Made by a program: the position numbers and the translations under genes
Source: Asticcacaulis tiandongensis
Lineage (GTDB): Bacteria; Pseudomonadota; Alphaproteobacteria; Caulobacterales; Caulobacteraceae
Reading direction: 5' to 3'
Length of the DNA: 64,000 nt
Assembly (NCBI RefSeq): GCF_006475605.1
Contig: NZ_SSBC01000020.1
Coordinates: 62,001-126,000 of the forward strand
Part shown: piece by piece, positions 15,910 to 20,300 of the stretch
How the letters are laid out: each line of letters begins with the position of its first letter
Position numbering within the stretch: the first letter of the stretch is position 1
Notes under the pieces: model-generated
What the model was told of the DNA's origin: nothing
The model's database searches: none
Seen by the model: the letters and a program-made list of their open reading frames with translations, nothing else

Positions 15910-15925
15910 ATGGTTTTCAGTTTGC

Positions 15926-15931
15926 TATAAG
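15926..15931 (+). promoter_or_regulatory. Probable -10 element of the guanidine exporter gene
   Basis: TATAAG lies just before the riboswitch. The T-rich tail of the fumC terminator occupies the -35 region, so the -35 is weak or unclear. Confidence 0.35.
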
Positions 15932-15936
15932 CCCGC

Positions 15937-15979
15937 TACCCGACGAGACGCGCCGTACCGGGTTAAGACAAGACGACGC
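15937..15979 (+). ncRNA. Guanidine-III riboswitch (ykkC-III)
   Basis: The run from ACCCGACGAG through GCGCCGTACC, GGGT and GACAAGACGACGC matches the conserved core of the ykkC-III pseudoknot (GACGAG, GCGCCGUACC, GGU, GACAAGACG, CGC) almost base for base. It sits 26 bases before the start of an SMR-family guanidine exporter, the usual partner. GGTTAAGAC at 15961-15969 can also pair with GTTTTAACC at 15983-15991, which abuts the GGAG ribosome site at 15995-15998. That pairing would compete with the riboswitch helix, a plausible expression platform. Confidence 0.9.
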
Positions 15980-16005
15980 TTTGTTTTAACCAATGGAGCG
16001 TTACC

Positions 16006-16329
16006 ATGCCCTTAGCCTGGGTCTTTCTCGGCATTGCCGGTCTTCTTGAAATCTGTTGGGCCGTTGGCCTTAAATATACCGAAGGCTTTACCAAGCCCTT
16101 GCCGTCACTGTTTGTGCTTGTGACCCTTGCGGCCAGTATGTTTTTGCTGGCCAAGGCGGCGGAAACCCTGCCGATTGGCACAGCCTATGCCATATGGGTC
16201 GGTATAGGTGCCATGGGTGCGGCTATATTGGGGATATTCCTGTTCAGCGAACCTGTGACGGCACCGAGACTGTTTTTCCTCGGAATGTTGCTGGTGGCCA
16301 TTATCGGTCTTAAGGCCACCGCCGCCTGA
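16006..16329 (+). CDS. sugE: Guanidinium exporter, SMR family (Gdx/SugE)
   Basis: 107 residues with four membrane helices. The key proton/substrate glutamate is in GLLEICWAVGLKYTEGF, near residue 14, and the Gdx signature GLKYTEGFTKPLPS is present, separating it from the EmrE branch. These dual-topology dimers exchange guanidinium for protons. The guanidine-III riboswitch directly upstream supports guanidine as the true substrate rather than quaternary ammonium drugs. The ribosome site is GGAG, seven bases from the ATG. Confidence 0.93.
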   Translation: MPLAWVFLGIAGLLEICWAVGLKYTEGFTKPLPSLFVLVTLAASMFLLAKAAETLPIGTAYAIWVGIGAMGAAILGIFLFSEPVTAPRLFFLGMLLVAIIGLKATAA

Positions 16330-16340
16330 TTGCGATACGG

Positions 16341-17543
16341 TTACGCCGGTACCAGTAATGGTGCCGGCGTTTCATTACTGGGCTGATCACGCAGGGATTT
16401 TACGAAGGCAAAGACCTGTGCCTTGACGATTTCATCTTCGCCGCGTTCGGCCAGAAGATAAAGCTCGGCCATGGCGGTTGGTGACAGTTGCAGGCTCATA
16501 TTCTGATTGACGACTTTGAAAATGCCGGGGCGCAGCGGCGCACGGATTTCGTTGTCATCGACAAGGGCTTCGGTAATCTTCTCGCCATCACGTAAGCCCG
16601 TCAGGACGATTTTGATATCTTTGTTAGGCCTCAGGCCGTACAGCCGGATCATGCGTTTGGCCAGATCACAGATCTTGATCGGCGAGCCCATTTCCAGAAT
16701 ATACAGGTTCGATTTTTCTTCGGGGTGTGAGGCGTTGTGACGTGCCGCCGTCATCACCAGTTGCACAGCCTCGGCAATGGTCATGAAGAAACGCTCAACC
16801 TTTGGGTCGGTCAGGGTGATGGGGCCGCCGCGCTCAATCTGTGAACGAAACAGAGGCACAACCGAGCCGGTCGAGCCCAGCACATTGCCAAAACGCACGA
16901 CGCAGGCCTGATTGGATGAGCCGAGTTGCGTCGAGATCAGATGTTCAGCCAGACGCTTGGTCGCGCCCATCATGCTGGCGGGGGCCACAGCCTTATCGGA
17001 AGAAATCAGCACCAGCTGTTTTACTTTGGCGGCCTTGGCGGCATCGATGACATATTGCGTGCCCATGACATTGGTCAGAACACCCTCAGAGGGGTTAAGC
17101 TCAACCATCGGCACGTGTTTCAGGGCGGCGGCATGGAAAATGACGTCCGGCTTTTGCTCAACGAAAATAGCCTCAAGGCGGGCCTTGCGGCGGATCGAGC
17201 AGAGTATCGGCAACAGGGGGGCATCAGGAAATTCGTAACGCAGCGCTTTTTCGACGTCATAAAGCGCCAGTTCCGAATGGTCGATCAGGACAATGCGCGC
17301 GGCCCCCAGCGACAGGGCCTGACGGGCGATTTCGGAGCCAATGGAGCCGCCGGCACCGGTAACAAGGATCGATTTGCCCGCATAAAATTGCTTCAGACCA
17401 TCCTTGTCCAGCTCCACCTGAGGGCGGTGCAGAAGGCGTTTATAGGATAGGGAATCATTAGGGTCGGCCAGAGACAGGGTCACGGATTTACGGCCGATGA
17501 ACGGCAGTTTGGCAACGAAGCGTAAGAACTTATAGTTATTCAA
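16341..17543 (-). CDS. UDP-sugar 4,6-dehydratase/epimerase, CapD/FlaA1 family, lacking the membrane domain
   Basis: 400 residues. The extended-SDR NAD motif is SILVTGAGGSIGSEIARQAL (~ residues 58-77). The active site is altered from YxxxK to SSDKAVAPASMMGATKR, the SDK...M...K form of UDP-GlcNAc 4,6-dehydratases. The linker LLHRPQVELDKDGLKQF, normally preceding the catalytic domain in the long membrane-bound form, is kept, but the four N-terminal helices and the nucleotide-binding domain are missing. It thus looks like a truncated long-form enzyme for surface polysaccharide sugars. The apparent start is TTG with no clear ribosome site, so the true start is uncertain. Confidence 0.8.
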   Translation of the reverse strand: MNNYKFLRFVAKLPFIGRKSVTLSLADPNDSLSYKRLLHRPQVELDKDGLKQFYAGKSILVTGAGGSIGSEIARQALSLGAARIVLIDHSELALYDVEKALRYEFPDAPLLPILCSIRRKARLEAIFVEQKPDVIFHAAALKHVPMVELNPSEGVLTNVMGTQYVIDAAKAAKVKQLVLISSDKAVAPASMMGATKRLAEHLISTQLGSSNQACVVRFGNVLGSTGSVVPLFRSQIERGGPITLTDPKVERFFMTIAEAVQLVMTAARHNASHPEEKSNLYILEMGSPIKICDLAKRMIRLYGLRPNKDIKIVLTGLRDGEKITEALVDDNEIRAPLRPGIFKVVNQNMSLQLSPTAMAELYLLAERGEDEIVKAQVFAFVKSLRDQPSNETPAPLLVPA

Positions 17544-17695
17544 TGGTTTGTAAATCCGACAACGCCAAACCTTACTTCGGCCTATAGTTATAGATTAACG
17601 TGTATCGGGGTATTGCCACAACCCTTTTTCCTCACGCAGATGTGTTTAAATCCACGGATTAATATAAAAAATAAATAAGATAGGTGGGTGCGGGC

Positions 17696-17877
17696 AAAAA
17701 AAGACCGCAGACGAGGAATGGGGGACACGTCTGCGGTCGGGACCAGTTTTTCACTTGGAGCAGAGCCAGAGCTCTCACTCAGGATACACAGATAAACTTG
17801 GGACAGGACTGCCTGAATTTATCTGTATGGGGTCATGAACGATCGGGAAGAGTCAGGGGCGTCCGGACCGTCCATAA
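17696..17877 (-). ncRNA. Candidate small RNA with FNR/FixK-type promoter and rho-independent terminator
   Basis: This lies in the 416-base gap between the CapD-like gene and btuB. On the minus strand a perfect TTGAT-N4-ATCAA box (17907-17920) is followed by TATAAC (17884-17889) and then about 180 bases ending in a strong terminator: GACCGCAGACG pairs with CGTCTGCGGTC over 17703-17738 with seven U residues. A second 9-bp stem (17788-17796 with 17818-17826) lies within. Several C-rich single-stranded runs, including UGUCCCCCAUUCCU in the terminator loop, could pair with ribosome sites. The only ORF has 18 codons and no ribosome site. It could instead be the 3' end of the btuB transcript. Confidence 0.5.
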
Positions 17878-17906
17878 GACCGTGTTATATTATTTTTACG
17901 TGCGCA

Positions 17907-17920
17907 TTGATCAAAATCAA
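17907..17920. promoter_or_regulatory. Perfect FNR/FixK box
   Basis: TTGATCAAAATCAA matches TTGAT-N4-ATCAA on both strands. Its centre is about 36-41 bases before the expected start of the minus-strand small RNA, the class II activator position. It is 40 bases past the btuB stop, so it does not control btuB. Confidence 0.7.
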
Positions 17921-17959
17921 CCTGTGGTGATTTTATAGCTTTGCGCATGGTTTTCAATT

Positions 17960-19828
17960 TTAAAACAGGTCGGCGCGCAGGCCGAGCCACAGACGACGGC
18001 CCGGGACGCTGTAACCACCGGCGGTTTCGTAATCGGCATCGCCCAGATTTTCGACGCGGCCATAGACGGTAATGCGTTCACGGATCTGATAAGCGGCGCG
18101 CAAATCAAGCACACCGTAGGGCTTGAGGCGGCGCGTAGAGAAATCCGAATCGCGGGTCGAACCGGCATAGCGCAGGCCGAGGCCGATGTTGAAATCAGGT
18201 GTGACAGTATGGGTGATGTCGATATTGCCCAGATGACGCGGACGACGCGGCAAATCGATGTCCGTTACGGCGTCTTTGGCAATCACATGGCTGTAGTTGG
18301 CCCGCAGGCGGGTATTGACCGTCAGGTCGCCTTCGAACTCAAGCTCCAGACCTTCGGCTTCGGTGCGGGCGCGGTTGAGGTAATAGCCGCCCCATTCGCC
18401 GCGATCATCACACAGGGCGATCGGTGCTTCGTAGCAGTTGACATAGGTGAAGTGGTTCTTCGTTTCGCGTTTGAAGGCCGTCAGGCTGACGCGGGCGCGG
18501 CGTGCCGTCATGTAATAGTCCACGCCGATTTCACCGCTTTCGGCTTTTTCGGGCGCAAGGTCAGGGTTACCAGTGTCGGAATAGAGCTGATAGAGGCTTG
18601 GGGCATTAAAGCCCTGACCGAAGCTTGCGCGCAGCACCAGATTGTCGGTGGCCAGATAGGAGGCCGAGACGTGGCCAATGGTGTGATCGCCAAAGGTTTC
18701 GTGATCGGCGTAGCGCAGGCTGGCGGTCAGATTAAAGGCGTCGGTGAAGTCATGCGAGGCCTGCACAAACAGGCTGTCGATCGAGACGTCCTTGTCCATG
18801 ACCGGCCCGCCATAGGCCTGATAGGTGGCTTCGGATTGCTCGTGGCTGGCGCCGAACACCAGACGGGTGACATCGCTCAGATGCGCCGTGCCGGTATAGT
18901 CGAAGGTGCGTACCTTGCCCTTGCCATTCAGGTTTTCTACGTCTGTACCACTGTAGTCGTGGCGCTCTGAATCGACCTGAGAGAGCGACAGGGCGTGGGT
19001 CATATTTGCGCCGGTAAAGCGATAACCAAGGCTATAGACGCTTTCCAGCACATTGCCATAATCAGCCGTATCGCCGAAATTATCATAATCGGAATGGCTG
19101 CGGGTGCGCAGGGCGCTGAGGGTTACAGCATGCGCGTCGCTGATGGCGTAACCCAGGCCCAGACGGTACTGGTTCTGGCTGAAGGTGTCGATTTCCGTAC
19201 CGCTTTTGAGGGCGGACAGATCGGATTCTTTGGTGCGACCGGCGGCAAGGCGCCAGGTCAGTTTGTCCTGCTTGCCGCCAAGGCTCAGGCGGACGGCACC
19301 ATAATCCTCAAGCCCTTCGAGCGAAAAGCGGCCTTCGAGCGGGCGGGTAACCTGTTTGCTTGACAGGCTGACGACACCGCCCACGGCACCGGAACCCCAC
19401 AGGGTGGCGAAGGGGCCACGCACGACTTCGATGCGCTCAATGTCGCCCGCAATCAGCAGGCCGGCATTGATATTACCACCGATCTGCGTCGGATCGGCCA
19501 GACGTATGCCATCCAGCACATAGATGGTGTGGTCGCTTTCGGCCCCGCGAATTCGCGTCGTGGCCACCGTGCCAAGGCCGCCATTCTGGGCGATGGTCGC
19601 CGAAGGGGTGAGGGCCAGAAGTTCAGCGACGTTCAGGGCCTGCTTGTTTTCGATGGTGGCGGCATCCAGTACGGCGACGCTCTGGCCGGTCTTCAGGATA
19701 GGTGTCGGGGCGCGGGTGGCGGTGACGATAATCGTCTCTTTCGGGTTTTCTGCCTGATCGGCAAAGGCGACAGGGGCGGCGGCGATCAGAGCGGCGGCGC
19801 AAACGGTGCGAAGCAGGGGGTGGGACAT
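17960..19828 (-). CDS. btuB: TonB-dependent vitamin B12 receptor
   Basis: 622 residues. A signal peptide (LLRTVCAAALIAAAPVAFA) precedes a TonB-box-like ETIIVTATR, then the plug domain (VAELLALTPSATIAQNGG, TTRIRGAESDHTIYVLDGIRL, ERIEVVRGPFATLWGSGAVGGVV) and a beta-barrel ending in ...RRLWLGLRADLF with an aromatic terminal residue. Length and plug motifs match BtuB. The cobalamin riboswitch upstream (19958-20130) confirms control by B12. Imported cobalamin would feed the MetH encoded at 5608-8283. Confidence 0.92.
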   Translation of the reverse strand: MSHPLLRTVCAAALIAAAPVAFADQAENPKETIIVTATRAPTPILKTGQSVAVLDAATIENKQALNVAELLALTPSATIAQNGGLGTVATTRIRGAESDHTIYVLDGIRLADPTQIGGNINAGLLIAGDIERIEVVRGPFATLWGSGAVGGVVSLSSKQVTRPLEGRFSLEGLEDYGAVRLSLGGKQDKLTWRLAAGRTKESDLSALKSGTEIDTFSQNQYRLGLGYAISDAHAVTLSALRTRSHSDYDNFGDTADYGNVLESVYSLGYRFTGANMTHALSLSQVDSERHDYSGTDVENLNGKGKVRTFDYTGTAHLSDVTRLVFGASHEQSEATYQAYGGPVMDKDVSIDSLFVQASHDFTDAFNLTASLRYADHETFGDHTIGHVSASYLATDNLVLRASFGQGFNAPSLYQLYSDTGNPDLAPEKAESGEIGVDYYMTARRARVSLTAFKRETKNHFTYVNCYEAPIALCDDRGEWGGYYLNRARTEAEGLELEFEGDLTVNTRLRANYSHVIAKDAVTDIDLPRRPRHLGNIDITHTVTPDFNIGLGLRYAGSTRDSDFSTRRLKPYGVLDLRAAYQIRERITVYGRVENLGDADYETAGGYSVPGRRLWLGLRADLF

Positions 19829-19890: not shown

Positions 19891-19957
19891 GGACATATCG
19901 TCTCTGGGGAACAAGCCTTTTAAGCCTATCCACTCTTGCGACTGCCCCGGTCACGCG

Positions 19958-20130
19958 AAGGACGACAGCAAAGGCAGGTCTCCTGACTTGCGCCTCAGAC
20001 GTTTCATGTCGCCTTCCCGATGAAGCTCATCAGTGGCCTGTGACAGGAAACTCGGCGTTCACAGTTGCGGGGACAGTGCGGAGATTACATCCGCTTCCCT
20101 TTTAAGCCGTATAAATACGGCACCATTTGC
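19958..20130 (-). ncRNA. Cobalamin riboswitch
   Basis: Reading the minus strand in order: an AAAGGGAA element, the CCCGCAACTGT core, GCCACTG, GGGAAGGCG, and the B12 box AGTCAGGAGACCTGCC (complement at 19973-19988). These are the conserved landmarks of AdoCbl/cobalamin riboswitches in the right order and spacing. It leads into btuB. Exact ends are approximate. Confidence 0.93.
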
Positions 20131-20300
20131 ACAGGGCTGCGCTTAGGGCAGGGGGCAGACAGGGTCAAGATCGCATAAGGCTGATTTTCAAGGGCTGTGG
20201 CGCGAAAGCCTCGCCAGCGCCATCTGCACAGCAAAGGAAAATATCTGGCGAAGGTGTTTCCTTTCGATGGAAATCGATTTATAGCTTTGACCAACATCCC

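What the first reader, a model, noticed from the sequence alone, without database searches (positions are those of the whole stretch)
17693..17920. Candidate oxygen-responsive small RNA between the CapD-like gene and btuB
Seen: a perfect TTGAT-N4-ATCAA box, a TATAAC -10 at the correct distance, and about 180 bases ending in an 11-bp terminator stem with seven U residues, all on the minus strand. A second 9-bp stem and several C-rich single-stranded runs (such as the terminator loop) suggest an RNA that pairs with ribosome sites. Known: FNR/FixK activate from around -41.5, and FnrS-type small RNAs exist in enterobacteria. Inference: this could be an alphaproteobacterial FNR/FixK-dependent riboregulator. 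The rival view is a btuB 3' UTR, 83 bases after its stop.
Basis: partly seen in the sequence, partly recalled or inferred. Interest (0 to 1): 0.8.

Follow-up and report, generated by a model that had tools for sequence, protein, structure and literature searches.

The report
Probable FNR-box small RNA in Asticcacaulis
Between two ordinary genes of an Asticcacaulis bacterium lies what looks like a short, strongly folded RNA gene with a binding site for a low-oxygen or nitrate regulator at its promoter; it is a credible but unproven small RNA, and it was not found in the other genomes examined.

Summary
The letters described are there: a perfect TTGAT-N4-ATCAA box (17907-17920), TATAAC (17884-17889) and an 11-bp terminator with seven T (17696-17738), on the minus strand. 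The stretch folds far better than chance (z -5.5; opposite strand -2.2; none of 200 other stretches of the window as low). The genome has 12 such boxes against 0 for the reversed control; six of them lie on one contig beside genes that look like nitrate, molybdopterin and anaerobic genes.

Parts of the interpretation do not hold. The -10 lies 17, not 22, bases after the box, so the box is centred near -36.5 over the -35: activation is doubtful, repression possible. Oxygen as signal is unproven: of the two CRP/FNR-type regulators found, neither has N-terminal FNR cysteines, and one is a nitrate-sensing-domain (NIT)-Crp fusion. Conservation fails: 0 of 198 other Caulobacteraceae genomes matched, and none of 23 btuB downstream regions has the box. 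A similar terminator stem follows btuB in 8 of 15 relatives scanned, so it may be btuB's.

Best reading: a lineage-specific RNA gene with an FNR-type operator (about 0.5). Main rival: a btuB 3' UTR. Targets unknown.

The parts
17907..17920 (-). perfect FNR/FixK-type palindrome TTGATTTTGATCAA
   Evidence: one of 12 in the genome, 0 for the reversed control pattern
17909..17914 (-). possible -35 TTGATC, inside the box, 16 bases before TAATAT
   Evidence: regular-expression match only
17887..17892 (-). alternative -10 TAATAT
17696..17877 (-). candidate RNA, about 180 nt (5' end inferred at about 17875-17880)
   Evidence: fold z -5.48; strand asymmetry; background; no transcript data
17835..17875 (-). 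hairpin 1, 10 bp plus 3 bp, loop with CCCC and UCCC
   Evidence: 3 of 500 shuffles as good; sampled pair probabilities 0.90-1.00
17786..17828 (-). hairpin 2, 13-bp stem with an inner 4-bp stem
   Evidence: z -4.84, 0 of 500 shuffles
17758..17780 (-). hairpin 3, 9 bp; not better than chance on its own
   Evidence: 73 of 500 shuffles as good
17696..17738 (-). intrinsic terminator: 11-bp stem, 14-nt loop UGUCCCCCAUUCCU, seven U
   Evidence: z -7.46; a similar stem after btuB in 8 of the 15 relatives scanned, out of 23
17960..19828 (-). TonB-dependent receptor, BtuB-like, upstream neighbour
   Evidence: PF00593, PF07715; cobalamin riboswitch at 19956-20142
16341..17543 (-). CapD-like polysaccharide biosynthesis protein, downstream neighbour
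   Evidence: PF02719 E 3.9e-101

Best explanation
A lineage-specific non-coding RNA gene of about 180 nt, transcribed on the minus strand from its own sigma-70-type promoter just after btuB and ended by an intrinsic terminator. An FNR-type box covers its -35 region, so a CRP/FNR-family regulator (the NIT-Crp fusion or the 267-aa protein) controls it; because of the spacing I think steric repression at least as likely as activation. The RNA would act by base pairing through its open C-rich stretches. Shown: box, promoter-like hexamers, structure, strand bias, terminator, many such boxes in the genome. Inferred: that it is transcribed on its own, which regulator binds, the sign of control, and trans-pairing; no target is known.
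For: Fold z -5.48, much stronger on the minus strand; 0 of 200 other stretches as low; the four hairpins persist when folded within a longer transcript from inside btuB. 12 boxes in 3.2 Mb against 0 control matches; 8 of 12 intergenic by my ORF script; in 7 of 24 other genus genomes that I checked the counts were 2-11. Shuffles of the spacer give a box in 22 of 20,000. In three truncated transcripts the terminator's 5' arm makes only a small local hairpin, not an upstream pairing.
Against: No relative by BLAST in 60 other genomes, best E 0.0085 over 22 bases, or by covariance model in 198 others (model from one sequence, stricter filters). The terminator stem resembles those after btuB in relatives. 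Spacing 17 rather than 22. 4 of 12 boxes lie inside frames, so chance boxes occur. Target test gave no general signal. No expression data.
Confidence: 0.5

Rival explanations
1. It is the 3' UTR of btuB, ended by btuB's terminator; any small RNA would be cut from the btuB mRNA, as NarS is from narK and UdsC from its mRNA.
For: Starts 83 bases after the btuB stop on the same strand. 8 of the 15 relatives scanned (of 23) have a CCGC../..GCGG-type terminator whose stem begins 75-102 bases after the last sense codon of btuB. UTR-derived sRNAs are known: NarS (PMC8139620, passages), UdsC (PMC9779115, listing and start of abstract).
Against: A perfect FNR-type box and -10 hexamers lie between the stop and the structure; the hairpins before the terminator were not found in relatives, whose terminator stem begins at 75-102 bases against 224 here.
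Confidence: 0.3
2. It is a regulated 5' leader of the CapD-like gene: an FNR-type promoter and a structured leader with a terminator that is sometimes read through.
For: Same strand; capD begins about 150 bases after the terminator.
Against: No alternative pairing of the terminator's 5' arm with upstream sequence in the minimum-energy folds of three truncated transcripts; the terminator is strong.
Confidence: 0.07
3. The box is a chance palindrome with no regulator; the structure is incidental.
For: Genomes with few boxes still have 2-3, so a few of the 12 here are probably chance; the box is not conserved downstream of btuB.
Against: 22 of 20,000 shuffles of the spacer; fold statistics.
Confidence: 0.13

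Closest known systems
FnrS (E. coli/Salmonella)
   Same: small RNA gene with a TTGATnnnnATCAA-type site at its promoter; FnrS is also ended by an intrinsic terminator (recalled)
   Different: the fnrS site is centred at -42.5 and activates (PMC3688515, passages); here about -36.5. No match to an FnrS family in Rfam at gathering level or at E<=10; that Rfam holds such a family is recalled. The FnrS regulator is FNR; no FNR with N-terminal cysteines was found here.
NarS (Salmonella; 3' UTR of narK) and UdsC (Rhodobacter; 3' UTR)
   Same: RNA lying directly after a gene on the same strand
   Different: both are mRNA-derived (passages; start of abstract); here promoter-like sequence and a regulator box precede the RNA
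PcrZ (Rhodobacter sphaeroides)
   Same: alphaproteobacterial RNA induced at low oxygen with FnrL involved (PMC8139620, passages)
   Different: no sequence comparison made; PcrZ control goes through PrrA, with FnrL perhaps indirect (same passages)
DenR and PaiI (denitrification RNAs of Paracoccus and Pseudomonas)
   Same: RNAs of nitrate-respiring bacteria (passages)
   Different: other hosts and regulators; not compared by sequence

Membership tests
FNR-activated small RNA (FnrS-like function) | perfect or near-perfect FNR box upstream | tested here: met
FNR-activated small RNA (FnrS-like function) | box centred at -41.5 +/- 4 from the start site | tested here: inconclusive
   17-base spacing gives about -36.5, at most -38.5 if the start is 17875; start site unmapped
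FNR-activated small RNA (FnrS-like function) | oxygen-sensing FNR/FixK in the genome | tested here: inconclusive
   only two CRP/FNR-type proteins found; no N-terminal cysteine set in either; FixK needs none (recalled), so the 267-aa protein is not excluded
FNR-activated small RNA (FnrS-like function) | expression depends on the regulator | not testable with these tools
   no transcript data
FnrS RNA family | match to a known RNA family | tested here: not met
   no Rfam match at gathering level in the element; seven weak matches at E 0.41-8.4, all below their gathering scores and none to FnrS
3'-UTR-derived sRNA | released by processing of the upstream mRNA, no own promoter | not testable with these tools
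   promoter-like hexamers present, but no 5'-end data
intrinsic terminator | stable GC-rich stem followed by U-run | tested here: met

The most novel reading that the evidence does not exclude
A recently arisen Asticcacaulis small RNA governed by a nitrate-sensing NIT-Crp fusion rather than by FNR. It appeared where the moaC-moaE-moaD genes are missing from the btuB-capD interval and would link nitrate respiration to outer-membrane or cobalamin uptake.
Probability: 0.12. Interest if true: 0.65.

Novelty: new member of a known kind. Interest (0 to 1): 0.42.

Why it matters
Five full-text searches (and, with no paper, 59) listed no paper whose title or abstract start names an FNR/FixK-controlled small RNA of Caulobacterales; they cover open-licence papers only, and of those listed I read passages of one (PMC3751524). 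If the RNA is real, it gives a testable case of a young RNA gene taken into an anaerobic/nitrate regulon in this family, possibly under a fusion regulator that reads nitrate directly.

Tried and rejected
Homologue search by BLAST in 60 other genomes: only short chance-level matches. By covariance model: nothing at E<=0.1 in 198 other family genomes; among 48 btuB/capD loci only self, a partly overlapping stretch of the own locus on the opposite strand (E 0.041) and four matches at E 2-9.6. Box plus TATAA in 25 genus genomes: own, and one in G002 inside a frame that looks like glutamyl-tRNA synthetase. Plasmids and phages: no match at E<=0.1. Relatives of the BtuB-like protein in viral contigs: none. 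Rfam at E<=10: seven weak matches.

Target test: six open stretches against 70 automatically chosen start regions (window plus seven own-genome loci). Two stretches paired better than mono-shuffled ones (HP2 loop by about 3.7 sd, linker 1-2 by about 1.8 sd) and four paired worse (HP1 loop, linker 2-3, terminator loop, linker 3-4). No target is claimed.

An 18-codon frame starting at the ATG of 17875, which would be nearly leaderless, was considered; nothing supports it. A -35-like TTGTGC with 16-base spacing after btuB in relatives was considered; only 3 of the 15 relatives scanned fit the -35/-10 expression, so it was not pursued. The box as a relic of a moa promoter was considered and not tested.

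Full report
WHERE IT IS. The window is G000:C17:62001-126000 of a 3.2-Mb, 22-contig genome. CapD-like relatives at 79-81% identity come from five named Asticcacaulis records, and four of those contigs have exactly the lengths of contigs of the searched genus, so the organism is an Asticcacaulis. On the minus strand the order is: cobalamin riboswitch, BtuB-like receptor, the element, CapD-like gene.

WHAT IS THERE. The box, TATAAC and terminator are as described. The predicted RNA has four hairpins. Hairpin 2 (z -4.84) and the terminator (z -7.46) are far beyond shuffles, hairpin 1 moderately (3 of 500 shuffles as good), hairpin 3 not (73 of 500). Sampled pair probabilities are 0.90-1.00. The whole has z -5.48 on the minus strand (-5.77) and -2.17 on the plus strand, as expected if the RNA of the minus strand is what matters. 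In 200 evenly placed 183-nt stretches of the window none was at or below -5.5; the lowest was -4.48.

THE BOX IN ITS GENOME. TTGATNNNNATCAA occurs at 12 places in the genome, and the backward control pattern at none. By my ORF script 8 of 12 are intergenic and 4 are inside frames of 100 codons or more. Six of the 12 lie on contig C16, all intergenic, four at 0.9-10 kb and two at 159-163 kb. Read by eye from the translations, the genes there look like RIC/ScdA, MobA, MoaE, MoaD, MoaA, U32 peptidases (UbiU-like), NarK, ModA and anaerobic ribonucleotide reductase (names recalled, not searched). Seven other genus genomes, chosen out of 24, have 3, 3, 7, 2, 3, 3 and 11 boxes, so two or three per genome may be chance. 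The exact 14-mer of the element also stands 72 bases before a TonB-receptor-like gene (L113).

WHICH REGULATOR. A search for HTH_Crp_2 gave six places, of which four are not CRP/FNR proteins by their sequences, which look like Rrf2, MocR, Lrp and HutC types (by eye). A search for cNMP_binding gave three: the NIT-Crp fusion, the 267-aa protein and a patatin-like protein (by eye). The 547-aa protein on C16 has PF08376 NIT, PF00027 and PF13545. Neither regulator has an N-terminal cysteine cluster; both have cysteines near the C-terminus. From memory, Bacillus FNR holds its cluster with C-terminal cysteines, so oxygen sensing is not excluded. Among 25 genus genomes 8 match the fusion protein at E<=1e-20, but only own and G017 over the NIT part.

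GEOMETRY. In E. coli 19 of 23 activated promoters with known start have the site at -41.5 +/- 4, fnrS at -42.5, while repressed promoters have sites from -125.5 to over +1 (PMC3688515, passages read). Here TATAAC follows the box by 17 bases, giving about -36.5. Own-genome comparison is mixed: the RIC-like gene has CATAGT at 22 and one side of L117 has TATTTC at 22, but the anaerobic reductase promoter has candidates at 17, 19 and 21, and other sites show no clear hexamer. I conclude that the 'correct distance' is not met and that the sign of control is open.

CONSERVATION. The BtuB-like gene was found in 24 of 25 genus genomes with strong scores, own included; G004 had only a weak partial match. 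In the 23 others, no perfect box lies in the 497 bases after the stop; the best are 2 mismatches in 4 of 23 (L051, L052, L068, L073), about what the window's chance rate would give. I gave the terminator scan 16 of the 24 loci (own and 15 relatives); the other eight, whose downstream neighbours differ by eye, were left out. Of the 15, eight (L051, L052, L063, L069-L073) have a terminator of similar stem (CCGC/GCGG; ACGCAG/CTGCGT in L063) beginning 75-102 bases after the last sense codon; here it begins at 224 (alignment of these nine). The single-sequence model found nothing in 198 other family genomes. No close relative is held, so 'lineage-specific' may only mean 'no near genome sampled'.

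REARRANGEMENT. In A. aquaticus the interval between btuB and capD carries frames that look like moaC, moaE and moaD on the opposite strand (by eye); the window lacks them there, and MoaE/MoaD-like frames lie on C16 by a box. So this spacer differs in make-up between the lineages, which fits a young element; which arrangement is older was not tested by a tree.

CONCLUSION. Structure and box are real and more than chance. The likeliest reading is an RNA gene under an FNR-type operator whose sign and signal are unknown; the nearest rival is a btuB 3' UTR. Interest is moderate, because conservation and targets are missing.

Noticed in passing
G000:C16:5620-7260(-), L122:1429-3072: A regulator that fuses a NIT nitrate/nitrite-sensing domain to a CRP/FNR-type protein (PF08376+PF00027+PF13545), with perfect FNR boxes on both sides, beside moaA- and U32-peptidase-like genes; a 61% near-full-length relative only in G017 among 25 genus genomes. 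Two listings named no such fusion in titles or abstract starts; of the papers listed there I opened only PMC8139620, where 'NIT domain' does not occur.
   Followed up: partly
window 15919-15982(+) and 16006-16329(+): Guanidine-III riboswitch (Rfam, 49.7 bits) directly before a 107-aa small multidrug-resistance-type transporter frame (name by eye).
   Followed up: no
window 19956-20142(-): Cobalamin riboswitch (119.5 bits) before the BtuB-like gene.
   Followed up: no
window 17544-17959; L034:2613-3816: moaC-, moaE- and moaD-like frames lie between btuB and capD in a relative but not here; MoaE/MoaD-like frames sit on contig C16 next to an FNR box.
   Followed up: partly
L113:1501-1514 (G000:C10:1064519-1064532): The identical 14-base box TTGATCAAAATCAA stands 72 bases before a TonB-receptor-like gene.
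   Followed up: no
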